From Microtetraspora fusca (GTDB lineage Bacteria; Actinomycetota; Actinomycetes; Streptosporangiales; Streptosporangiaceae), in contig NZ_BBYK01000049.1 of NCBI RefSeq assembly GCF_001570365.1, positions 62,001-126,000 of the forward strand: DNA of 64,000 nucleotides. The letters are read 5' to 3'. Under the pieces are notes generated by a model. That model saw nothing but the letters and a program-made list of their open reading frames with translations, did not search any database and was not told the DNA's origin. Each line of letters starts with the position of its first letter. Within the stretch, counting starts at the first letter, position 1. This document shows, piece by piece, positions 7,961 through 56,365 of this stretch. Both the position numbers and the translations under genes were made by a program.

Positions 7961-9507
7961 ACGGCACCATCCCAGCGCCGACCATCGAATACGCCCTGTT
8001 GGCGCCGATGCTGGTCGTCTTCGGCGCGGCGATCATCGGCGTGCTCGTGGAGGCGTTCGCTCCCCGCTATCTGCGTTCGGCGATCCACAAGCCGCTGACG
8101 CTGCTGGCGCTGGCCGGCGCCTTCGTGATCACGATCTGGCAGGCGCGCACCAACATCCCGACCAGGCCCTCGGCGATGGGCGCGGTGGCGATCGACGGTC
8201 CGGCGCTGTTCATCTGGGGCACGATCCTCGTGCTCGCGTTCGTGAGCGTGCTGCTCATCAACGACGAGGGCCACTTCGTCGCCTCGGCCTCCGCCGTGCC
8301 CGGCTCGGCCGAGGAGGAGCGGGCGCTCACCGAGGGCGCCGTGCACACCGAGGTCTATCCGCTGGTGCTCTTCGCGGTCGGCGGCATGCTGCTCTTCCCG
8401 GCGGCCAACGACCTGCTGGCCATGTTCGTGGCCCTTGAGGTCATGTCGCTGCCGCTCTACCTGCTGTGCGGGCTGGCCCGCCGTCGCCGCCTGCTCTCGC
8501 AGGAGGCCGCGGTCAAGTACTTCCTGCTCGGCGCCTTCTCCTCCGCGTTCTTCCTGTACGGCACGGCCCTGCTGTACGGCTACGCGGGCTCGGTGGACCT
8601 GGCGAAGATCGGTAGCGCGCTGGGCTCGGTCGGCGGGCAGGACACCCTGCTCTACATCGGCGTCGCGATGCTCGGCGTCGGCCTGCTCTTCAAGATCGGC
8701 GCGGCGCCGTTCCAGGCGTGGAAGCCGGACGTCTACCAGGGCTCGCCGACCCCGATCACCGCGCTGATGGCCTCGGGCACGCTCGTCGCCGCGTTCGGTG
8801 CGCTGCTGCGGGTGTTCTGGGTGGCGCTGGGCGGCCTGCAGTGGAGCTGGACCCCGATCATGTGGGGTGTGGCGATTCTCACGATGGTCGTCGGCGCGAT
8901 CCTCGCGATCACCCAGACGGACATCAAGCGCATGCTCGCCTACTCGTCGATCGCGCACGGAGGTTTCCTGCTCATCGGCGTCGTCGCGCTCGGCGACAAG
9001 CAGCAGCACAACGTCTCGGCGCTGTCCGCGCTGCTGTTCTACCTGGTGGCCTACGGGTTCACCACGGTGGGCGCGTTCGCGATCGTCACGACGGTGCGGG
9101 ACGCGGGTGGCGAGGCGTGGCACCTGTCCCGGTGGGCCGGTCTCGGCAAGCGCCGTCCGCTGGTCGCCGTGGTGTTCTCCCTCTTCCTGCTCGCCTTCGC
9201 CGGAATCCCGCTGACCAGCGGTTTCTTCGGGAAGTACGCGGTCTTCCAGGCTGCCGTGGAGGCCGGGGCGACCCCGCTCGTGGTGGTCGGCGTGGTGTCC
9301 TCGGCGATCGCCGCGTTCTTCTACGTCCGGGTCATCGTGCTGATGTTCTTCAGCGATCCGGCGGCCGACGGACCCTCCGTGGTGATTCCTGGGGGCACCT
9401 GGGCGGTCGGAGCCGCGGCGGTATTGGCTACCGTAGTCCTCGGGGTCTTCCCGCAGCCCGTGCTCGACCTGGCGCACACGGCTGCCCAGTCGTTGTTCGT
9501 CCGATAG
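7957..9507 (+). CDS. nuoN: NADH-quinone oxidoreductase subunit N
   Basis: This is the third antiporter-like subunit (ND2 family), 516 residues. Diagnostic segments include MFVALEVMSLPLYLLCGLAR (TM5 Glu), FKIGAAPFQAWKPDVYQGSP and QTDIKRMLAYSSIAHGGFLL. The GTG start overlaps the nuoM stop. It is the last nuo gene; a polyprenyl synthase starts 13 nt downstream on the same strand. Confidence 0.97.
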   Translation: MNGTIPAPTIEYALLAPMLVVFGAAIIGVLVEAFAPRYLRSAIHKPLTLLALAGAFVITIWQARTNIPTRPSAMGAVAIDGPALFIWGTILVLAFVSVLLINDEGHFVASASAVPGSAEEERALTEGAVHTEVYPLVLFAVGGMLLFPAANDLLAMFVALEVMSLPLYLLCGLARRRRLLSQEAAVKYFLLGAFSSAFFLYGTALLYGYAGSVDLAKIGSALGSVGGQDTLLYIGVAMLGVGLLFKIGAAPFQAWKPDVYQGSPTPITALMASGTLVAAFGALLRVFWVALGGLQWSWTPIMWGVAILTMVVGAILAITQTDIKRMLAYSSIAHGGFLLIGVVALGDKQQHNVSALSALLFYLVAYGFTTVGAFAIVTTVRDAGGEAWHLSRWAGLGKRRPLVAVVFSLFLLAFAGIPLTSGFFGKYAVFQAAVEAGATPLVVVGVVSSAIAAFFYVRVIVLMFFSDPAADGPSVVIPGGTWAVGAAAVLATVVLGVFPQPVLDLAHTAAQSLFVR

Positions 9508-9519
9508 GAGCTTCCCTCT

Positions 9520-10515
9520 ATGGCCGCGCCGCCCGTTGTTGACCTGCCTCTCGTCGACGAGCGGCTGGCCGCGGACCTGGCGAACGGGCTCGCGGCCGTG
9601 GAGAAGCAGCTCCGCGCCTCGGTGGAGAGCGAGGACGCCTTCGTCACGGAGGCGTCCCGGCACCTCATCGAGGCCGGCGGCAAGCGTTTCCGGGCGATGC
9701 TCGTCCTGCTCGCCGCCCAGTTCGGCAACCCCGACGCCCCGGGCGTGGTGCCCGGGGCCGTCGTGATCGAGCTGACCCACCTGGCCACGCTGTACCACGA
9801 CGACGTCATGGACGAGGCGCCCGTGCGGCGCGGCTCGCCCTCGGCGAACGCCCGCTGGGACAACACGGTGGCCATCCTGACGGGCGACTACCTGTTCGCC
9901 CAGGCGTCCGAGATCCTCTCCGATCTCGGGCCAGAGCTCATCCGCATCCAGGCGCAGACGTTCTCCCGCCTGGTCCGGGGACAGATCCGCGAGACCATCG
10001 GGCCGTCCGAGGGCGTCGACCCGATCACGCACTACATCCAGGTGCTCGCCGACAAGACCGGCTCTCTCATCGCCACCTCGGGCCGCTTCGGCGCCCTGCT
10101 GTCGGGCGCGCCCGCCGAGGTGACCACCCGGCTGACCGAGGCGTGCGAGGCGATCGGCGTGGCCTGGCAGCTCGGCGACGACCTCATCGACGTGGCCGCG
10201 CCGACGGCCGACTCGGGCAAGACCCCGGGCACCGACCTTCGTGAGGGCGTCCAGACCCTGCCCGTGCTGTACGCGCTGGCGTCCGACCGGCCGGAGGACG
10301 CGCGGCTGCGGGCCCTGCTCTCCGGGCCGGTCGCCGAGGAGGACGTCGACGAGGCGTTGGAGCTGCTGCGGGCCAACCGGGCGATGATCGAGGCCCGCGA
10401 GGAGCTGCTGCGGTGGGCGGACAAGGCCAAGAAGGCGCTCGCCGGCCTGCCCGCGATCCCCGCCCGCGAGGCTCTGATCGGCCTCTGCGACTACGTGGTC
10501 GAGCGTTCGGGCTGA
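9520..10515 (+). CDS. trans-polyprenyl diphosphate synthase (probably menaquinone side chain)
   Basis: This 331-residue all-trans isoprenyl diphosphate synthase has the two Asp-rich Mg2+/diphosphate motifs DDVMD (residues 94-98) and DDLID (220-224), plus GGKRFR (53-58) that binds isopentenyl diphosphate. The family elongates farnesyl or geranylgeranyl diphosphate. Its place directly after nuoN in the same direction is common in actinobacteria and suggests that the product prenylates menaquinone, the electron acceptor of this complex I. Chain length (hepta, octa or nona) cannot be read from sequence alone. GGAG lies a few bases before the ATG. Confidence 0.92.
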   Translation: MAAPPVVDLPLVDERLAADLANGLAAVEKQLRASVESEDAFVTEASRHLIEAGGKRFRAMLVLLAAQFGNPDAPGVVPGAVVIELTHLATLYHDDVMDEAPVRRGSPSANARWDNTVAILTGDYLFAQASEILSDLGPELIRIQAQTFSRLVRGQIRETIGPSEGVDPITHYIQVLADKTGSLIATSGRFGALLSGAPAEVTTRLTEACEAIGVAWQLGDDLIDVAAPTADSGKTPGTDLREGVQTLPVLYALASDRPEDARLRALLSGPVAEEDVDEALELLRANRAMIEAREELLRWADKAKKALAGLPAIPAREALIGLCDYVVERSG

Positions 10516-10520
10516 GAGAC

Positions 10521-10542
10521 GGCCCCGGCGACCGCCGGGGCC
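10521..10542 (+). terminator. GC-rich hairpin after the polyprenyl synthase
   Basis: A perfect 9-bp stem (GGCCCCGGC/GCCGGGGCC) with a 4-nt loop starts 6 nt after the stop codon. There is no U tract, as is common for actinobacterial terminators. It probably ends the nuo operon transcript. Confidence 0.6.
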
Positions 10543-10556
10543 CAGCGAGCCGCTCA

Positions 10557-10589
10557 GGCCCCCTGGAGTGGCTTTCCTCCCAAGGGGCC
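10557..10589. terminator. Second hairpin between convergent genes
   Basis: GGCCCC at 10557-10562 pairs with GGGGCC at 10584-10589, with an inner GGAG/CTCC pairing. It lies 7 nt beyond the stop of the convergent RarD gene, so it may serve that strand or both. Confidence 0.45.
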
Positions 10590-10595
10590 CAGAGG

Positions 10596-11507
10596 TCAGA
10601 CCGCTTCGAGTGTGGGTGCCGTGCGCGCCTCGCGCCGGGCCGCGCGGGCGGTGCGCAGACCGTCCCAGGTGAAGACGCAGAGCGCGAGCCAGACGATCGC
10701 GAAGCCGATCCACCTGCTGCCCGGCATCGTCTCGCGCAGGACCAGGACGCCGCACAGGAACTGCAGCACCGGGGCGATGTACTGGAGCAGGCCGACGACG
10801 GTCAGTGGTACCCGGATCGCGGCGGCGGAGAAGAACAGCAGGGGCACCGCGGTGATCAGCCCGGCGCCCACGAGCAGCGCGATGTGGGCGGCCCCGTGGT
10901 CGACGAACGTGCCGCTGCCGTTCGCCTGGAGGACGACGAGGTAGCCGAGCGCGGGCACCAGGAGCACCAGCGTCTCGATGGTGAGGCTCTCCGCCGCGTC
11001 CACCTGCGCGGCTTTCTTGACCAGCCCGTACGTGCCGAAGGACGCGGCCAGGACCAGCGCGATCCAGGGCAGCCGGCCGTAGTCGAGCGTCAGGACGAGC
11101 ACCGCGAGGGCGCCGAGGCCGACCGCCGCCCACTGCCAGGGACGCAGCCGCTCGCGGAAGATGACGACGCCGAGCAGGACGCTGACCAGCGGGTTGATGA
11201 AGTAACCGAGCGCGCTCTCCACGACGTGGCCGGTGTTGACCGCGTAGATGTACATGCCCCAGTTGGTGGAGATGACGACGGCGGCGAGGGTGAGCAGGAG
11301 GAGCTGGCGGCGCGTGATCGAGCGGATCCACGACCAGTGGCGGCGGACGCCCAGGATGGCCAGGACCGCGACGAGAGACCAGACCATGCGATGCGCGAGG
11401 ATCTCGACGGCTCCGGCGGGCTTCAGGAGCGGCCAGTACAGGGGGAACAGACCCCACATGGCGTACGCGGCTATGCCGTACAGGACTCCTCGGCGTGATT
11501 CAGGCAT
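10596..11507 (-). CDS. rarD: RarD-type EamA-family permease
   Basis: This 303-residue protein has ten predicted hydrophobic helices arranged as two EamA (DMT) repeats. The N-terminus (GVLYGIAAYAMWGLFPLYW) and the segment LQYIAPVLQFLCGVLVLRE are typical of RarD, annotated as chloramphenicol-sensitive protein. The substrate is not known. It is divergent from msrA across a 124-bp AT-richer spacer. Confidence 0.9.
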   Translation of the reverse strand: MPESRRGVLYGIAAYAMWGLFPLYWPLLKPAGAVEILAHRMVWSLVAVLAILGVRRHWSWIRSITRRQLLLLTLAAVVISTNWGMYIYAVNTGHVVESALGYFINPLVSVLLGVVIFRERLRPWQWAAVGLGALAVLVLTLDYGRLPWIALVLAASFGTYGLVKKAAQVDAAESLTIETLVLLVPALGYLVVLQANGSGTFVDHGAAHIALLVGAGLITAVPLLFFSAAAIRVPLTVVGLLQYIAPVLQFLCGVLVLRETMPGSRWIGFAIVWLALCVFTWDGLRTARAARREARTAPTLEAV

Positions 11508-11543
11508 GACACCCAGTGTGACTCCTTACGGGATTTAATACAA

Positions 11544-11580
11544 ATAAGCAATGGTTGCCTTCATATTTAGTGATGCTTAT
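11544..11580. promoter_or_regulatory. AT-rich divergent promoter region with inverted repeats
   Basis: Between rarD and msrA the GC content drops sharply. It contains ATAAGCA (11544-11550) and its inverse TGCTTAT (11574-11580), plus the small palindrome GCAA-TGG-TTGC (11548-11558). This suggests promoters and perhaps a regulator site for one or both divergent genes. Confidence 0.35.
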
Positions 11581-11631
11581 GAAAGGGAACAATCGGCGCG
11601 ACGCCCCGGTTTGGGGCGATGGAGGTGCGAC

Positions 11632-12294
11632 ATGGGCTGGCTGTTCGGACATGACAAGACATCGATGGTGGCTCCCTCGGAAGCGCTGCCCGGCCGATCC
11701 GAGCCGATGCCGGTGGCGTCCCGGCACCTGGTGCTCGAGGCGCCGCTGGCTCCGCCGTACGACGAGGGGCTGGAGATCGCCGACTTCGGGCTGGGGTGCT
11801 TCTGGGGCGCCGAACGCAAGTTCTGGCAGACGCCCGGCGTCGTCTCCACCGCCGTCGGCTACGCGGGCGGATACACGCCCAACCCGACGTACGAGGAGGT
11901 GTGCACCGGGCTGACCGGTCACACCGAGGCCGTCCGGGTGGTCTTCGACCCCAAGCGGGTGTCGTTCGAGGAACTGCTGAAGGTCTTCTGGGAGGCTCAC
12001 GACCCGACCCAGGGCATGCGCCAGGGCAACGACGTCGGGACGCAGTACCGCTCGGCCATCTACACGCACGGCGCCGAGCAGGAGAAGGCCGCCCTCGCCT
12101 CTCGTGACGCGTACCAGCGGGTGTTGAACGAGGCCGGCTACGGCCACATCACGACCGAGATCGCCCCCGCCGGCCCGTTCTACTTCGCCGAGGACTACCA
12201 CCAGCAGTACCTAGAGCGGAATCCGGGCGGCTACTGCGGCATCGGAGGCACGGGTGTCGCATGTCCGGTCGGCCTCACGTCCGGTGAGGCGTAG
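11632..12294 (+). CDS. msrA: Peptide methionine (S)-S-oxide reductase
   Basis: This 220-residue MsrA reduces methionine-S-sulfoxide in proteins with thioredoxin as reductant. The catalytic motif GCFWG contains C56; the C-terminal resolving cysteines are C202 (GGYCGIGG) and C211 (GVACPVG). The ATG at 11632 is chosen because GGAGGTG lies 5 nt upstream. An in-frame start at 11551 would add 27 unlikely residues. The last 31 codons (from 12202) and 72 bp of 3' flank are duplicated at 13281, and a more diverged version occurs at 14907, so the 3' end behaves as an insertion or duplication site. Confidence 0.95.
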
Positions 12295-12366
12295 ACCTGC
12301 GGTAACTGATCGACCCTGGCCCTTGGTCGCCCGGCTTGCCCGGTGACGATCAAGGGCCAGAGCCGT
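12202..12366 (+). repeat. msrA 3'-end direct repeat, copy 1
   Basis: 165 bp made of the end of msrA plus 72 bp downstream. It matches 13281-13445 with only about six mismatches. The two copies are exactly 1079 bp apart and bracket the toxin-antitoxin pair. Confidence 0.95.
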
Positions 12367-12388
12367 CTCCAGCAAATCAGGATGTATA

Positions 12389-49002: not shown

Positions 49003-49656
49003 ATGGCCATACGAGTCTTGATCGCCGACGACCAGGAGATGGTACGGCGCGGCCTGCGCCGCATCCTGGAGAGCCAGCCGGACATCGAGGTCGTCTGCGA
49101 GGCGGCCGACGGCGTGACCGCGGTGGAGATGGCCCGGCGGTTCCAGCCGGACGTGGCGCTGGTCGACATCCGGATGCCGCGGATGGACGGGCTGGAGGTG
49201 ACCCGCCTGCTCGCCGGTCCCGACGTCGCGTCCCCGGTCAAGGTGGTGGTGGTGACGACGTTCGATCTGGACGAGTACGTCTACCCGGCCTTGCAGTACG
49301 GCGCTTCCGGCTTCCTGCTCAAGCGGTCGGGACCGGCGCTCCTCATCGAGGCGGTCCGGGCGGCGGTGGCCGGGGACAGCCTGATCAGCCCCTCCGTCAC
49401 CGTGCGGCTGCTGAAGCACGTCACCGGCTCCGGCCCCCGGCACGCGCCGCTGCCCGAGCCGCTGACCGAGCGCGAGATCGAGATCGCCGGCCAGGTGGCC
49501 GAGGGCAAGACCAACGCCGACATCGCCGCCGAGCTGTTCATCTCGCCCGGCACGGTCAAGACCCACGTCGCGAGCATCCAGCGCAAGCTCGGCGTGCGGA
49601 ACCGGGTCGGCATCGCCGTACGGGCCTGGGAGATGGGGATAAGAACTGCTCGCTAA
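49003..49656 (+). CDS. NarL/LuxR-family response regulator
   Basis: This 217-residue protein has a receiver domain with acidic pocket IADD (D9/D10) and phosphoacceptor D55 (VDIRMP), followed by the LuxR helix-turn-helix LTEREIEIAGQVAEGKTNADIAAELFISPGTVKTHVASIQRKLG. The start is ATG 49003. The last five residues (IRTAR) appear to be contributed by the left end of the IS607-family element: without it the frame would read WEMG followed by TAA from the right flank at 51688, four bases before the kinase ATG. Confidence 0.9.
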   Translation: MAIRVLIADDQEMVRRGLRRILESQPDIEVVCEAADGVTAVEMARRFQPDVALVDIRMPRMDGLEVTRLLAGPDVASPVKVVVVTTFDLDEYVYPALQYGASGFLLKRSGPALLIEAVRAAVAGDSLISPSVTVRLLKHVTGSGPRHAPLPEPLTEREIEIAGQVAEGKTNADIAAELFISPGTVKTHVASIQRKLGVRNRVGIAVRAWEMGIRTAR

Positions 49657-49697
49657 AACATGAGCGAATGTGAGCGAACGTACGTTTTAATGAGTGC

Positions 49698-50282
49698 GTG
49701 AAGCTCGCTGAGTGGGCGCGGTCGCAGGGTATTCACCCGCAGACCGCTTACCGGTGGTTCCGGGAAGGCAAGATGCCTGTCCCGGCCCGTCGTCTGCCCA
49801 CCGGCACGATCGTCGTGGACGGCCCGGTTGTGGCGGACTCGGGCGGGGCCGCACTGTATGCGCGGGTGTCTTCTCACGATCAGCGCGGCGACCTGGACCG
49901 GCAGATCGCCCTCCTGACCTCCTTCGCCACCAGCGCTGGGCTGTCCGTGACGGCATCGGTGTCCGAGGTCGGCTCCGGACTGAACGGGCGGCGGCCCAAG
50001 CTGATGCGGCTCCTGTCGGATGCGTCCATCCAGGTAATCGTCGTGGAGCACCGCGACCGGCTGGCCCGCTTCGGCGTGGAGTACGTGGAGGCCGCCCTGT
50101 CTGCCCAGGGCCGCCGCCTGGTCGTGGCCGACCCCGGCGAGACCGCCGATGACTTGGTGCGCGACATGATCGAGGTGTTGACGTCGATGTGCGCACGTTT
50201 GTATGGGCGGCGCGGGGCGCGCAACCGGGCACTTCGAGCAGTCACCGCCACGAAGGCCGACCCCGGCGGGGACGGCTCGTGA
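49698..50282 (+). CDS. IS607-family serine recombinase (TnpA)
   Basis: This 194-residue protein has a MerR-like N-terminal helix-turn-helix (residues 1-40, MKLAEWARSQGIHPQTAYRWFREGKMP) followed by a small serine-resolvase catalytic domain: ALYARVSSHDQ (catalytic Ser 58), SGLNGRRPKLMRLLSD, VVEHRDRLARFG. It lacks a C-terminal DNA-binding domain, the IS607 layout. It performs strand exchange through a circular intermediate. The GTG start is about 60 bp from the left end. The 3' end overlaps tnpB by 4 nt. Confidence 0.93.
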   Translation: MKLAEWARSQGIHPQTAYRWFREGKMPVPARRLPTGTIVVDGPVVADSGGAALYARVSSHDQRGDLDRQIALLTSFATSAGLSVTASVSEVGSGLNGRRPKLMRLLSDASIQVIVVEHRDRLARFGVEYVEAALSAQGRRLVVADPGETADDLVRDMIEVLTSMCARLYGRRGARNRALRAVTATKADPGGDGS

Positions 50283-51658
50283 AGGTCGTTCAGGCGTACC
50301 GGTACGCGCTCGATCCCGCGCCATCCCAGGTGGAAGCGCTTGCGTCGCACTGTGGTGCGGCGCGGTTCGCGTTCAACTGGGGTCTGGGATTGGTCAAGGC
50401 CGCACTCGATCAGCGGGCAGCCGAGCAGTCCTACGGCATCCCCAGCGAACTGCTGACCGAGGCGCCGTGGAACCTGTACGCCTTACGCCGGGCGTGGAAC
50501 ACCGCCAAGGGCCAGGTTGCGCCGTGGTGGGCTGAGAACTCCAAGGAGGCGTACAACACCGGGCTGGACGGCCTGGCGCGGGCGCTGAAGAACTGGGCCG
50601 CCTCCTGCAAGGGCAAGCGGGCGGGCAAGCCGATCGGCTTCCCCCGCTTCAAGTCCAAGCACCGGGCCGCCTTGTCGTGCCGGTTCACCACCGGGACCAT
50701 CCGCCTGGAGGCCGACCGCCGCCACGTCACCCTGCCCCGGCTGGGCACGATCCGCACGGCTGAGTCGACCCGGAAACTCGCCCGGCACCTGGAGCGTGGC
50801 ACGGGCCGGATCATGGCGGTCACCGTCCGGTACGAGGGCGGCCGGTGGTTCGTGTCCTTCACCTGCGAGATCGACCGGGCCGACCGTTCCCCTGCACGCT
50901 CTGACGCCGTGGTTGGCGTGGACCTTGGGGTGAAGAACCTCGCGGTACTGTCCACCGGCGAGGTGGTCCCCAACCCGAAACACCACCGGGCGGCCTTGCG
51001 GAAACTCCGCAAACTCAACAAGGAACTCGCCCGACGCCATGGTCCCCGCACACCCGGCGGGGGAAAGCGGGATGCGTCGGCCCGCTGGCACAAGACCAAG
51101 GCCGCCCTGGGCAAGGCACACGCGCGGGTGGCCGGCCAGCGGCGTGACGGCCTGCACAAACTCACCACTGCCCTGGCTGGCACGTACGGCACGGTCGTGG
51201 TCGAAGACCTCAACGTGTCCGGGATGCTCGCCAACCGCTCGCTGGCCCGCGTCATAGCCGACACCGGCATGGCCGAGGTGCGGCGGCAGTTCACCTACAA
51301 GACCACCTGGAACAGCGGCAGGCTGATCGTGGCCGACCGCTGGTTCCCCTCCTCCAAGACCTGCTCGGCATGCGGCGCGGTGAAAGCCAAGCTGCCGCTG
51401 CACGTCCGAGTCTTCGACTGCGACGAATGTCCCCTGGTCATGGATCGGGACGAGAACGCCGCACGTAACCTGGCCGCCCTCGCGGCCGACGTCGCCCAGA
51501 GTTGCGGGGAGACGGAAAACGCCCCCCGGGAGACCGGGCGGGACGGCAACCGCCGTCCCGGTGGAGTCGGTGTAAGACCCACCATTGGTGGGCGGTCGGC
51601 CGTGAAGCGGGAACCCCCGATGCGGGGAATGCCGGGCCGCAAGGCCACGGCTGCCTGA
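50279..51658 (+). CDS. tnpB: RNA-guided endonuclease TnpB
   Basis: This 459-residue protein has intact catalytic residues: RuvC acids D215 (GVDLG), E309 (VVEDLNV) and D389/D391 (DRDENAARN), plus the zinc finger C362/C365 and C381/C384. The N-terminal HTH_OrfB_IS605 region (YRYALDPAPSQVEAL...) is complete. The last approximately 65 residues are low-complexity because the coding region runs into the omega-RNA. TnpB uses that RNA to cleave the donor site after excision and keep the element. All motifs intact suggest it is active. Confidence 0.94.
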   Translation: MKVVQAYRYALDPAPSQVEALASHCGAARFAFNWGLGLVKAALDQRAAEQSYGIPSELLTEAPWNLYALRRAWNTAKGQVAPWWAENSKEAYNTGLDGLARALKNWAASCKGKRAGKPIGFPRFKSKHRAALSCRFTTGTIRLEADRRHVTLPRLGTIRTAESTRKLARHLERGTGRIMAVTVRYEGGRWFVSFTCEIDRADRSPARSDAVVGVDLGVKNLAVLSTGEVVPNPKHHRAALRKLRKLNKELARRHGPRTPGGGKRDASARWHKTKAALGKAHARVAGQRRDGLHKLTTALAGTYGTVVVEDLNVSGMLANRSLARVIADTGMAEVRRQFTYKTTWNSGRLIVADRWFPSSKTCSACGAVKAKLPLHVRVFDCDECPLVMDRDENAARNLAALAADVAQSCGETENAPRETGRDGNRRPGGVGVRPTIGGRSAVKREPPMRGMPGRKATAA

Positions 51659-51687
51659 CCTGTGCTCACACTCGATCACATTTCAGG
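51470..51687 (+). ncRNA. Probable omega-RNA (guide scaffold) at the 3' end of tnpB
   Basis: The right end of the element contains hairpins typical of TnpB guide RNAs: GGGACGGC-AACC-GCCGTCCC (51540-51559), CCCACC-ATT-GGTGGG (51578-51592) and the conserved-looking GTGAAGCGGGAACCCCC (from 51601). The guide would start at the element end near 51687, so the encoded target is the kinase-gene side of the insertion site (51688 onwards). The 5' limit is not determinable. Confidence 0.6.
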
Positions 51688-51694
51688 TAACGGT

Positions 51695-53101
51695 ATGCCC
51701 GCGCGCTCTGACCCGAACGCGGCCGGAACCGGGGGACCGGCGGGGCTGCGTACGCTCGTGGCCATGGTGCGAAGGGGGCCGGTGCGAAGGGGGCTGGTGC
51801 GGAGGGGGCCGGCGCGAAAGGGGAACGGCGCGGAGCCGCTCCCGCCGGGCGGCGCGGGACGCGCGAGAAGGTTCCGGTTCCGCGACGTGTTGTGCGCCCT
51901 GGTCGTCGCGATGGTGCCGATCCCGGCCGTCCTCGCTCCTCCGAGCGGGCTCGTCGTCGCGTTCTCGGCCACCCTGGCCACGGCGGTCGCGCTGACGCGC
52001 CGGCCGTATCGGCGGGTCGGCCTCGCCACGGCGGCGAGCGTCGTCGCGGCGGTCTCCTTCGCCGTCGCCTTCCTCTATCAGGGACGGCATCAGCTCGTCG
52101 GGCTGTGGCTGCCGATCGAGCTGGGCGCGGTGCTGCTCCTCCTGGGACGGGTGATCCGGCGGCTGCCGGGCGCGCAGGCCGCGGTGATCGGGACGGCGCT
52201 GGCCGTCGCGGCGGCGGTGGAGCTGCCCCTGCGGCTCACGCTCCGGATGCCTCGCCCCTCGCTGGACGCGTCGGTCGCCGGGTGCCTTCTGGCGTTCTTG
52301 TCCATGGCCTGCGTGGCGGGCGTCGCGCTGTACCTCAGGATCCAGGACGACCGGAGGGTACGCGCGGTGGCGCGGGCGAGGCGCGCCCAGCGGCTCGAAG
52401 TGGCCCGCGACCTGCACGACTTCGTCGCGCACGAGGTCACCGGCATCGTGCTGGAGGCCCAGGCCGCGCAGTTCGGCGACCTCGACCAGGAGCAGGCGCG
52501 GGCCTTCGCCCTCCGCGTCGAGGAGGCCGGGCTGCGGGCGCTCGCGTCGATGGACCACATGGTCGGCGCGCTGCGCGACCCGGACGAGCGCGCGGCCGCG
52601 GAGCCGCCGCCGACCCGCCTGTACGGCCTGGCCGACCTTCCGGACCTCGTCGGCCGCTTCTCCGCCACCGGAGGGATCCCGGCCGAGATCCACATGCCCG
52701 GGGACACGGACGGCGTCCCGGCTGATCCGCTGCCGCGCGAGATCGAGAGCACCGCGTACGCCGTCGTCCTTGAGGCGCTGACCAACGTGCGGCGGCACGC
52801 GTCCTCGGCGAGCCGGGTGGTGGTCGCGGTCGCCCGCGCCGCCGGTCCCGCTCTGGAGGTGTCCGTCGTGGACGACGGCGGCCGGGGCCGTACCGGCCGG
52901 AGGAGACCGGACGGCGGGGAGGGCCGGCCGTCCGGGCTGTCGGGGAGCGGGCGGCAGGGCGGCGGCACCGGGCTGATCGGCCTGGCCGAGCGGGTCGAGG
53001 CGCTTGGGGGCACCCTGCGCACCGGCCGCCACGAGCAGGGGTGGAAGGTCACGGCGGTTCTGCCGGTCCTGGAGGGCGCGGGAGCCGCGGCGCGGTCCTG
53101 A
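51695..53101 (+). CDS. NarL-type sensor histidine kinase (HisKA_3)
   Basis: This 468-residue protein has about five or six transmembrane helices in residues 70-220. The dimerisation/phosphoacceptor motif ARDLHDFVAHEVTGIVLEAQ has H241. The ATPase region includes VVLEALTNVRRHASSASRV (N-box), VDDGGRGRTG and GGTGLIGLAERVEALGGTL (G-box). It is the likely partner of the response regulator at 49003 and is separated from it by the IS607-type element. Start options are ATG 51695 or ATG 51764; between them the 15-bp tandem repeats are found. Confidence 0.88.
   Translation: MPARSDPNAAGTGGPAGLRTLVAMVRRGPVRRGLVRRGPARKGNGAEPLPPGGAGRARRFRFRDVLCALVVAMVPIPAVLAPPSGLVVAFSATLATAVALTRRPYRRVGLATAASVVAAVSFAVAFLYQGRHQLVGLWLPIELGAVLLLLGRVIRRLPGAQAAVIGTALAVAAAVELPLRLTLRMPRPSLDASVAGCLLAFLSMACVAGVALYLRIQDDRRVRAVARARRAQRLEVARDLHDFVAHEVTGIVLEAQAAQFGDLDQEQARAFALRVEEAGLRALASMDHMVGALRDPDERAAAEPPPTRLYGLADLPDLVGRFSATGGIPAEIHMPGDTDGVPADPLPREIESTAYAVVLEALTNVRRHASSASRVVVAVARAAGPALEVSVVDDGGRGRTGRRRPDGGEGRPSGLSGSGRQGGGTGLIGLAERVEALGGTLRTGRHEQGWKVTAVLPVLEGAGAAARS
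51767..51826 (+). repeat. 15-bp in-frame tandem repeat, four units, at the kinase N-terminus
   Basis: Units GTGCGAAGGGGGCCG, GTGCGAAGGGGGCTG, GTGCGGAGGGGGCCG and a degenerate fourth encode VRRGP-VRRGL-VRRGP-ARKGN. The unit is a multiple of three, so length changes would keep the frame. Confidence 0.9.
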
Positions 53102-53795: not shown

Positions 53796-54731
53796 ATGAA
53801 TCGAACACCACTTCAGGGGACGCCGACGCTCGAACTGGAGCACGTCACCAAGGTCTACAAGGGCGGGAAACGGGCCGTGGACGCGGTGTCGCTGCGTCTC
53901 GGCGCGGGGCTGCTCGGCCTCCTCGGCCCGAACGGAGCGGGGAAGTCGTCGCTGATGCGCATCGCGGCGACCGTCACCCGCCCGACCAGCGGAAAGATCC
54001 TCTTCGACGGGACCGACGTGGTGTCCCGGCCGAACGCGCTTCGTGAGGTCCTGGGCTACCTGCCGCAGGACTTCGGCGTCTACCCCCACCTGTCCGCCCG
54101 GGAGTTCCTCTCCTATCTCGCCGCCGTGAAGGGGCTGTCGGCCCGCTCGGCGCGCCGCCGCATCGAGGAGCTGCTCGAACTCGTCAACCTCACCGAGGCG
54201 GGGCGCAGGCCGCTGGGCAAGTACTCCGGCGGCATGCTGCGCCGGGTCGGCATCGCGCAGGCCCTGCTGGCCGACCCCAAGGTGCTGATCGTGGACGAGC
54301 CGACGGCGGGGCTGGACCCCGAGGAGCGGGTGCGGTTCCGCACCCTGCTCAGCGACCTGGCGGAGGACCGGGTGGTGCTGCTGTCCACGCACATCGTGTC
54401 CGACATCGAGTCGGTGGCGTCCGACATCGCGATCGTGGCGCGGGGACGGCTCCTGCGGCGTGGCGCCCCGGAGGAGCTCCTCCGCGAGGTGGACGGCCAG
54501 GTCTGGGAGACGGTCGCCGGACCGGCCGAGGTCGCCGCCCTGCGGGAGCGCTACGTGATCAGCCGGACGGTCCGGACCGCGGACGGCGTCCGCCTCCGGC
54601 TCCTGTCCGCCACGCCGCCGGGAGGCGGCGCCGTACGGGTGACGCCCGACCTGGAGGACGTGTATCTGGCCGTCGTCAACGGGTCCGCCGGGCAGTCCCT
54701 GCGACAGGCCGGCGCCGGAGCGGGCCGATGA
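53796..54731 (+). CDS. ABC transporter ATP-binding protein
   Basis: This 311-residue ATPase has Walker A GPNGAGKSS (44-52), Q-loop YLPQDFG (89-95), signature YSGGMLRRV (143-151), Walker B VLIVDE (163-168) and the H-loop STHI. The C-terminal approximately 80 residues are the extra domain of export-type (drug or BcrA-like) ATPases. It overlaps the permease by 4 nt. It is adjacent to the two-component system at 49-53 kb, which may regulate it. Confidence 0.92.
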   Translation: MNRTPLQGTPTLELEHVTKVYKGGKRAVDAVSLRLGAGLLGLLGPNGAGKSSLMRIAATVTRPTSGKILFDGTDVVSRPNALREVLGYLPQDFGVYPHLSAREFLSYLAAVKGLSARSARRRIEELLELVNLTEAGRRPLGKYSGGMLRRVGIAQALLADPKVLIVDEPTAGLDPEERVRFRTLLSDLAEDRVVLLSTHIVSDIESVASDIAIVARGRLLRRGAPEELLREVDGQVWETVAGPAEVAALRERYVISRTVRTADGVRLRLLSATPPGGGAVRVTPDLEDVYLAVVNGSAGQSLRQAGAGAGR

Positions 54732-56365
54732 ACGCGCGGGCCCTGATCGCGCTGGCCGTCGCCGACTTCCGCGAGCGGGTACGGCGTCCCGCGTACGCGG
54801 CGACCCTGCTCGCGGCGGTCGGCCTGGCGTGCCTGGCCGTCCCGAGCGCCGCGTCCCACTGGACGATCCTCGACGTCGGGGGCTACCGCGGTGTCTACAC
54901 CAGCGCCTGGATCGGGACGGCCACCGCCCTCGCCGGAGCCCTGTGGCTCACGACCGGCGGGTTCTACGTGGTACGCGACGCGATCGGCCGGGACGAGCGC
55001 ACCGGTGTGGGCCGGCTCCTCGCCGCCACGTCGCTGAGCACGCCGGCGTACCTGCTGGGGAAGTTCCTCAGCAACTTCCTGGTGCTCGCCTCGATGGCGG
55101 GCGTCCTCGCGCTGACGGCCCCGCTCATGCAGCTCGCGCGGGGCGAGTCCTTCGCCGTCGACCCGGTGGCGCTGCTGGTGCCGTTCGCGGTGATGACGCT
55201 GCCTCCGCTGGCGCTGACGGCGGCGGCCGCGGTGCTGTTCGAGACCGTGCCGCTGCTGCGGAGCGGTGTGGGGAACGTCGTCTGGTTCGGCGTCTCCATG
55301 GCGTTCATGATGGCGGGGCAGGGCCCCCACGCCCCTCTCGGCGGCTTCGGGGTGCGGCAGGCGGCCGACTCCATGCGCGTCGCCATGGCCGACCAGGGGA
55401 TCAGCGTACGTAGCCGGGACTTCAGCCTCGGACTGACCATGGTGGACGAGCCGCTGCGCACCTTCCGCTGGGACGGGTTCACCCCGGACGGCGCCTTCCT
55501 GGGCGGCCGGCTGCTCTTCTTCGTGCTGGCGCTCGCCCTCGCGCTGCTGCCCGCACTGTGGTTCGGCCGGTTCGACCCGGCACGCCGCCTGCTCGGTGCG
55601 CCGGCGGAGGGGGTACAGGCGGGGAGCGCGCACGGAGCGGCGGCCGCGGCCGAGGGCGCGCAGGCGGCGGGGAGCGCGCACGGAGCGGCGGGACCGGCGG
55701 CCGCCGAGCCGCAGGTGCCCGCCCTGTTCGGCGGCGTTCCGGCGAGCGCCGCGCGCCGGGGGCGGGCGTTCCCGTTCTGGCGGCTCCTCGCGGGCGAGCT
55801 GCGCATCCTCGCCCAGGGGGTCTCGCGCTGGTGGTGGCTCGCCGCGGCGGCGGTGACGGTGGCCGGGTTCGTCACGCCGGAGCCGACGATGCTGCTCCCG
55901 GTCGCCTGGATCTGGCCGGTCCTGATCTGGTCCCGGCTCGGCACCCAGCGGGTCGAGCACGGTCTGGACGGGCTCCTCGGCGCCTACCCCACGCCGTCGA
56001 GGGGGCTCCTGGCGGAGTGGGCGGCCGGGGTCGTGTTCACGGCCGTGACCGGGGTCGCGCCGCTGGTCCGGATGGCGGTCGCCGCCGACTGGCCCGGTGT
56101 CGGGGCCTGGACGGGCGGGGCGATCCTGGTCCCGTCGCTGGCGCTGGCGCTCGGCGTGGCCTGCCGTACGCACCGGGTGTTCCAGGTTGTCTACCTGGTC
56201 GTGTGGTACCTGGCCGTCAACGGGGTGGCTGCTGTGGACTACATGGGCGTGGTCCGTTCCGGCGGCTCGCCCGCCGGCCTGTCGGCGCTCGCCGTCGCCG
56301 CCGTCGCCTTGCTGCTGGTCGGCGTCGCCCTCGCGGTCCGTACGGCACGGCACGCGACGCGCTGA
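54728..56365 (+). CDS. ABC-2-type transporter permease
   Basis: This 545-residue protein has about 12 predicted helices in two halves (residues 18-290 and 355-540), separated by a cytosolic Ala/Gly-rich linker (about 290-335) made of two near-identical GSAHGAA-containing units. It works with the preceding ATPase. The substrate is unknown. Confidence 0.85.
   Translation: MNARALIALAVADFRERVRRPAYAATLLAAVGLACLAVPSAASHWTILDVGGYRGVYTSAWIGTATALAGALWLTTGGFYVVRDAIGRDERTGVGRLLAATSLSTPAYLLGKFLSNFLVLASMAGVLALTAPLMQLARGESFAVDPVALLVPFAVMTLPPLALTAAAAVLFETVPLLRSGVGNVVWFGVSMAFMMAGQGPHAPLGGFGVRQAADSMRVAMADQGISVRSRDFSLGLTMVDEPLRTFRWDGFTPDGAFLGGRLLFFVLALALALLPALWFGRFDPARRLLGAPAEGVQAGSAHGAAAAAEGAQAAGSAHGAAGPAAAEPQVPALFGGVPASAARRGRAFPFWRLLAGELRILAQGVSRWWWLAAAAVTVAGFVTPEPTMLLPVAWIWPVLIWSRLGTQRVEHGLDGLLGAYPTPSRGLLAEWAAGVVFTAVTGVAPLVRMAVAADWPGVGAWTGGAILVPSLALALGVACRTHRVFQVVYLVVWYLAVNGVAAVDYMGVVRSGGSPAGLSALAVAAVALLLVGVALAVRTARHATR
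55621..55690 (+). repeat. 22-bp direct repeat in the permease linker
   Basis: 55621-55642 and 55669-55690 are identical and lie 48 bp apart, in frame. They code for GSAHGAA in each linker unit. Confidence 0.9.

What the first reader, a model, noticed from the sequence alone, without database searches (positions are those of the whole stretch)
49003..53101. IS607-type element inserted precisely between a response regulator and its kinase
Removing 49639-51687 restores a stop codon (GGG-TAA) for the regulator and places the kinase ATG four bases further on. The element therefore changed the regulator C-terminus to IRTAR and may have uncoupled kinase expression from the regulator. All TnpA and TnpB motifs are intact, suggesting recent arrival and activity.
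Basis: partly seen in the sequence, partly recalled or inferred. Interest (0 to 1): 0.5.

Follow-up and report, generated by a model that had tools for sequence, protein, structure and literature searches.

The report
Ordinary jumping element inside regulator's end

Summary
The IS607-family element is real: TnpA (49698-50282) and TnpB (50279-51658) score well above NCBIfam cut-offs and their catalytic residues are present. It interrupts a LuxR-type response regulator next to its histidine kinase. The right boundary in the finding is wrong by six bases. Seven relatives carry the same gene pair without the element, the nearest 97.5% identical in the regulator; all seven regulators end WE(M/L)GYAxxx-stop. 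The bases after the element, TATGCCCGCGCGCTCTGA, read YARAL-stop, so the element is 49639-51693, ending ...CAGGTAACGG like its relatives. The "GGG-TAA restored stop" is the element's own end; the "kinase ATG" at 51695 is old regulator sequence. The insertion lies inside the regulator, replacing YARAL by IRTAR; the length stays 217 aa. The kinase start conserved in all eight genomes is ATG 51764, behind a conserved TGCGTAC(G/C)CTC block that looks like a leaderless promoter. Uncoupling of the kinase is not supported, though untested. Arrival after the split from the nearest relative is supported; recent activity is not (one full copy and one decayed remnant found). The GGGG flank and GG core fit known IS607 rules. 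New member of a known kind, low interest.

The parts
49003..49656 (+). LuxR-type response regulator as it reads now, 217 aa; last five residues (IRTAR) and stop are element sequence
   Evidence: Pfam Response_reg and GerE
51694..51711 (+). stranded native end of the regulator gene (YARAL-stop); the finding's kinase ATG 51695 lies in it
   Evidence: homologous to the regulator end in 7 of 7 relatives; native length also 217 aa
49639..51693 (+). IS607-family element (2055 bases; the GG core is counted at the right end)
   Evidence: empty site in G041 and six others; right ends of related copies
49637..49638 (+). left copy of the GG core, last two bases of GGGG
   Evidence: GG core of the family: PMC6188088 passages
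51692..51693 (+). right copy of the GG core
49661..49676 (+). two TGAKCR motifs (49661, 49671) 10 bases apart near the left end, possible TnpA-binding sites
   Evidence: four other hits of the motif lie inside the element; function is inference
51663..51678 (-). two TGAKCR motifs (51663, 51673) on the minus strand, 10 bases apart near the right end
   Evidence: function is inference
49698..50282 (+). tnpA, IS607 serine transposase, 194 aa, GTG start
   Evidence: NF033518, 201.8 bits against cut-off 110; PDB 6dgb IS1535 transposase E 2.7e-64
50279..51658 (+). tnpB, RNA-guided nuclease family, 459 aa from GTG 50279, which overlaps the tnpA stop (the longest ORF begins at GTG 50189)
   Evidence: NF038280 IS607_TnpB, 620.7 bits against cut-off 350; RuvC and zinc residues; start chosen from the profile match
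51551..51693 (+). predicted right-end RNA scaffold; its last helix pairs TGCCTGA with TCAGGTA
   Evidence: consensus fold of 9 sequences; fold of 51551-51713 z -2.6, 4 of 200 shuffles as stable
51604..51655 (+). Rfam Transposase-2 RNA-like stretch, below the gathering score
   Evidence: 31.8 bits against 42.7, E 0.0011
51694..51713 (+). inferred guide stretch of the right-end RNA (old regulator tail)
   Evidence: inference from position; first guide base not determined
51747..51766 (+). conserved TGCGTACGCTC-N6-ATG block: candidate -10 (TACGCT, 51751-51756) of a leaderless kinase transcript
   Evidence: present in the window and, with G or C in TAC(G/C)CT, in 7 of 7 relatives
51764..53101 (+). 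histidine kinase from its conserved start, 445 aa (HisKA_3, HATPase_c)

Best explanation
A single IS607-family element inserted by serine-recombinase exchange at a GG core inside GAGATGGGG/TATGCC, five codons before the stop of the response regulator. Element = 49639-51693. It replaced the last five residues and stop of the regulator (YARAL) by five residues and a stop from its own left end (IRTAR). It left the kinase's conserved start (51764) and its promoter-like block untouched. TnpB with its right-end RNA is predicted to cut the empty allele (GGGG next to the old tail sequence) and so to favour keeping the element. Shown: boundaries, empty site in relatives, gene content. Inferred: TnpB cutting, leaderless kinase promoter, little effect on the two-component system.
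For: Family assignment of both proteins. Empty site in 7 of 7 relatives with a kinase match at E 1e-200 or better among 341 family genomes including the own; nearest G041 at 97.5% in the regulator and 93.7% in the kinase, collinear over about 7.8 kb aligned. Right-end matches to related copies: of 22 rows (two contigs counted twice), 13 end at 51693-51696, one at 51699, eight stop earlier (51616-51670), none at 51687. Right ends ACGG in 14 of 14 related copies placed without forcing, 12 distinct sites. At the copy in G141, relatives' flank homology begins exactly at the predicted first base, 2 of 2; at the copy in G182 two bases later, 9 of 9 held loci. The last RNA helix spans TCAGGTA, which the finding's end would cut. 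Kinase block conserved in 8 of 8 genomes.
Against: No expression or mobility data. The leaderless promoter is a motif inference; the sigma-70 consensus scan found no promoter in the region. The G141 and G182 sites gave no clean two-sided empty site; at the G141 site the two relatives read GGGGA, not GGGG, before the flank. The RNA family match in the window is below its gathering score, 3 of 8 related loci had no match at E 0.1, and the covariation term of the consensus fold is small, -0.66. Only the two best candidates per genome were scored in the family searches.
Confidence: 0.93

Rival explanations
1. One reading: element 49639-51687, inserted exactly between the genes, with the regulator once ending WEMG-stop and the kinase starting at 51695.
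For: Both ends carry GG, and deletion gives GGG-TAA-cggt-ATG.
Against: 7 of 7 relatives have five more regulator codons homologous to 51694-51711; related copies end ACGG; none of 22 right-end matches stops at 51687; the conserved kinase start is 51764.
Confidence: 0.02
2. The insertion alters kinase output: a native regulator-kinase transcript is cut, and the kinase is now fed by tnpB read-through, possibly with an extended N-terminus from GTG 51662 (in frame, just after the tnpB stop).
For: The kinase frame is open back to GTG 51662 inside the element; no terminator-like site was found on the plus strand between tnpB and the kinase start.
Against: Conserved own start and promoter-like block; spacing from regulator stop to kinase ATG varies from 34 to 163 bases among the six relatives measured, which argues against tight translational coupling.
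Confidence: 0.15
3. The changed tail (IRTAR for YARAL) disables the regulator.
For: The tail is kept as GYA followed by three residues in 7 of 7 relatives.
Against: It lies after the LuxR HTH domain match, which ends at residue 207 of 217; length unchanged; the rest of the reading frame is intact.
Confidence: 0.1

Closest known systems
IS1535 (IS607 family; host Mycobacterium tuberculosis is recalled)
   Same: its TnpA catalytic domain is the nearest solved relative of this TnpA (6dgb, E 2.7e-64); motifs about 10 bases apart starting about 20 bases from the left end, as described for IS1535 (passages)
   Different: two motif copies seen at each end here against four at the IS1535 left end in the paper; DNA sequences not compared
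   Same: gene order, GGGG or AGGG flank, AAC(T/C) left and ACGG right ends, right-end RNA fold
   Different: 78% is the nearest copy found in 341 family genomes; different chromosomal site
ISXfa1 and ISFba1 TnpB systems (IS607)
   Same: IS607 TnpB next to a right-end RNA; G-rich TAM (GGG for ISXfa1, AGGAG or GAGGG for others; passages of PMC10711439 and PMC11061315) compares with GGGG/AGGG flanks here
   Different: nuclease activity and TAM not tested here; the RNA resembles Rfam Transposase-2 weakly, and the Rfam search listed no RAGATH-18 match

Membership tests
IS607 family | TnpA serine recombinase with N-terminal DNA-binding and C-terminal catalytic domain | tested here: met
   NF033518 201.8 bits, cut-off 110, residues 5-177; resolvase domain at residues 51-177; Ser58 kept in 34 of 39 scored rows of 44 hits, the rest 2 gaps and one each C, G, R. 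N-terminal DNA-binding role inferred from the family model
IS607 family | insertion at GG with no further target duplication | tested here: met
   comparison with G041 and others: only GG is shared by both junctions
IS607 family | no terminal inverted repeats | tested here: inconclusive
   by eye the outermost bases differ, while sub-terminal motifs are inverted; no dedicated search
IS607 family | circular intermediate and TnpA-dependent mobility | not testable with these tools
   needs PCR or a transposition assay
TnpB RNA-guided nuclease (IS607 type) | RuvC D-E-D residues and four zinc cysteines | tested here: met
   all present in the window; D 31/31, E 31/31, D 30/31 with one gap; cysteines 30, 30, 30 and 31 of 31, in the window plus the 30 best of 80 loci
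TnpB RNA-guided nuclease (IS607 type) | structured right-end RNA overlapping the tnpB 3' end | tested here: inconclusive
   consensus fold with 13 of 34 pairs kept through two-sided changes in at least one of 9 sequences, small covariation term; Transposase-2 match below gathering in the window, in 5 of 8 related loci with one above gathering; the RNA itself was not observed
TnpB RNA-guided nuclease (IS607 type) | guided cleavage next to a TAM | not testable with these tools
   only the flank is seen: GGGG in 9 and AGGG in 2 of 11 left ends
LuxR-type regulator / HisKA_3 kinase two-component pair | adjacent receiver-LuxR regulator and HisKA_3 kinase | tested here: met
   adjacent in 7 of 7 relatives

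The most novel reading that the evidence does not exclude
The tnpB/right-end RNA transcript now runs into the kinase gene, so that processing of the guide RNA, or a tnpB-coupled start at GTG 51662 giving a longer kinase, sets kinase level: a mobile nuclease gene drawn into control of a two-component system.
Probability: 0.06. Interest if true: 0.4.

Novelty: new member of a known kind. Interest (0 to 1): 0.14.

Why it matters
Mainly as a correction: it shows how an IS607 element's own GG-containing right end can imitate a perfect intergenic insertion, and why an empty site from a relative is needed before claiming restored stops and starts. It also gives a well-bounded IS607 copy, with a known empty allele in relatives and a predicted guide, for testing an actinobacterial IS607 TnpB.

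Tried and rejected
Considered and rejected: the finding's right end at 51687 (relatives, right-end homology, RNA helix); kinase start at 51695 (old regulator codons). Tried for further empty sites: joined flanks of the copies in G141 and G182 gave one-sided flank homology but no clean two-sided site. Searched plasmids for a carrier: 65 records with distant matches, none with one place covering 80% of the element. Looked for a closer copy in 341 family genomes: best is 78%. Paper search for IS607 with two-component terms gave two genome papers, seen as a listing only. Structure prediction was not used. Not examined: three genomes with weaker kinase matches (G019, G073, G197; E 1e-71 to 1e-85), and G003, same genus, with a 73% regulator match and no kinase match at E 1e-60.

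Rows dropped: the right ends of L043 and L045 were placed by looking for ACGG and are left out of the count; the L169 row printed one base off and was read as ACGG (confirmed); L063/L066 and L071/L083 share flanks, so the 14 related copies (one of them the remnant in the own genome) are 12 sites. Of 12 left-end rows, L170 was dropped because it has no left end.

Full report
What is there. The stretch 49003-53101 holds a receiver-LuxR response regulator, an IS607-family element with tnpA and tnpB, and a HisKA_3/HATPase_c histidine kinase. TnpA scores 201.8 bits against a curated cut-off of 110 for IS607 transposases, TnpB 620.7 against 350 for IS607 TnpB. The nearest solved chain for TnpA is IS1535 (6dgb); for TnpB the list is led by an AI-designed nuclease (9yyg), followed by natural TnpB chains such as 8bf8 and 8h1j. 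The RuvC D, E, D, the four zinc cysteines and TnpA Ser58 are present.

The empty site. The window lies in a genome of 9.0 Mb in 108 contigs. Among 341 family genomes, own included, seven others have a kinase match at E of 1e-200 or better: G041, G002, G154, G098, G200, G001, G008. All seven have the regulator next to it and no element between. Their regulators end, in that order, WEMGYARPL, WEMGYARGR, WELGYAGGR, WELGYARVR, WEMGYARPR, WEMGYARAR and WEMGYARPR. In the closest, G041 (97.5% in the regulator, 93.7% in the kinase), the DNA is GAGATGGGGTACGCCCGCCCTCTGTGAC. The window reads GAGATGGGG, then the element, then TATGCCCGCGCGCTCTGAC, which is YARAL-stop in the regulator frame. G098 shares GGGGTATGCC. 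Three weaker kinase matches (G019, G073, G197) were not examined.

The right end. The six bases TAACGG (51688-51693) therefore belong to the element. Further support: (a) of 22 right-end match rows to related copies (two contigs appear twice), 13 end at 51693-51696, one at 51699 and eight stop earlier, none at 51687; (b) 14 of 14 related copies placed without forcing end in ACGG (12 distinct sites; one copy is the remnant in the own genome); (c) at the copy in G141, relatives' chromosomal homology begins exactly at the predicted base in 2 of 2, and at the copy in G182 two bases on in 9 of the 9 held loci, of 16 relatives matched, though neither gave a clean two-sided empty site; (d) the last helix of the consensus right-end RNA pairs TGCCTGA with TCAGGTA and would be cut by an end at 51687. 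The finding's restored stop was made of element bases.

Consequences for the regulator. The native and present proteins both have 217 residues; only the last five differ (YARAL to IRTAR), after the LuxR HTH match, which ends at residue 207. I expect little effect; this is inference.

Consequences for the kinase. ATG 51695 of the finding is old regulator sequence. A block TGCGTAC(G/C)CTC followed five or six bases later by ATG precedes the kinase in the window and in 7 of 7 relatives. The distance from regulator stop to this ATG ranges from 34 to 163 bases in the six relatives measured. TACGCT/TACCCT six or seven bases before the ATG matches the TANNNT signal described for leaderless genes, which are common in Actinobacteria (PMC3160421, passages). 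The sigma-70 scan found no promoter, so this is a comparative inference. The candidate -10 begins 58 bases, and the ATG 71 bases, past the element's last base, so the kinase probably keeps its own start. Read-through from tnpB, or an extended start at GTG 51662, is possible and untested.

How the element works. The GG core at both junctions, without other duplication, fits IS607 exchange; a (G)GG target preference is reported for IS607 (PMC6188088, passages). Left flanks are GGGG in 9 and AGGG in 2 of 11 left ends: the window and ten related copies, picked from 42 matches; an eleventh pick was dropped for lack of a left end. In the related copies this boundary is placed by alignment to the window. 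It fits G-rich TAMs reported for IS607 TnpBs: AGGAG or GAGGG (PMC11061315, passages) and GGG (PMC10711439, passages). TGAKCR motifs lie 10 bases apart at both ends, inverted to each other; four further hits lie inside the element. The right-end RNA has a consensus fold in which 13 of 34 pairs are kept through two-sided changes in at least one sequence, with a small covariation term. It resembles Rfam Transposase-2: below the gathering score in the window, matched in 5 of 8 related loci and above gathering in one of them. TnpB is thus likely to cut the empty allele beside GGGG; not tested.

Age and activity. None of the seven relatives has the element at this site, so it arrived after the split from G041. 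Elsewhere in their genomes no full-length copy was listed at the searches' thresholds (two best candidates scored per genome; G041, G098 and G154 gave only partial tnpB-like matches of 68-75%). The own genome holds one full copy, one internally deleted remnant on contig 60, and two short weaker matches. The nearest full copy elsewhere in the family is 78% identical. There is no evidence of recent movement within this genome.

Verdict. An ordinary IS607 insertion, correctly recognised but wrongly bounded in the finding; interest is low.

Noticed in passing
L041 (own genome, contig 60), about 7978-8250, minus strand: A decayed, internally deleted relative of the element: right end kept at about 87% identity, part of the left end visible by eye.
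   Followed up: partly
window 51764-51823: The kinase N-terminus starts with a short imperfect repeat (MVRRGPVRRGLVRRGPARKG), present in varied form in G041 but missing from G001.
   Followed up: no
window 53796-56365: Two ORFs that look by eye like an ABC-type ATPase and a membrane partner follow the kinase; the second is matched in 5 of 6 relatives tested. A possible target of the two-component system; no family search was made.
   Followed up: no
L045 4001-5364: The Streptosporangium sandarakinum TnpB relative reads with three stops inside the match: a broken copy.
   Followed up: no
G041 (L165) against the window: G041 bears another genus label than the own genome, yet is the nearest relative at this locus and at window 10000-12367 (95%), nearer than the same-genus genomes there.
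   Followed up: partly
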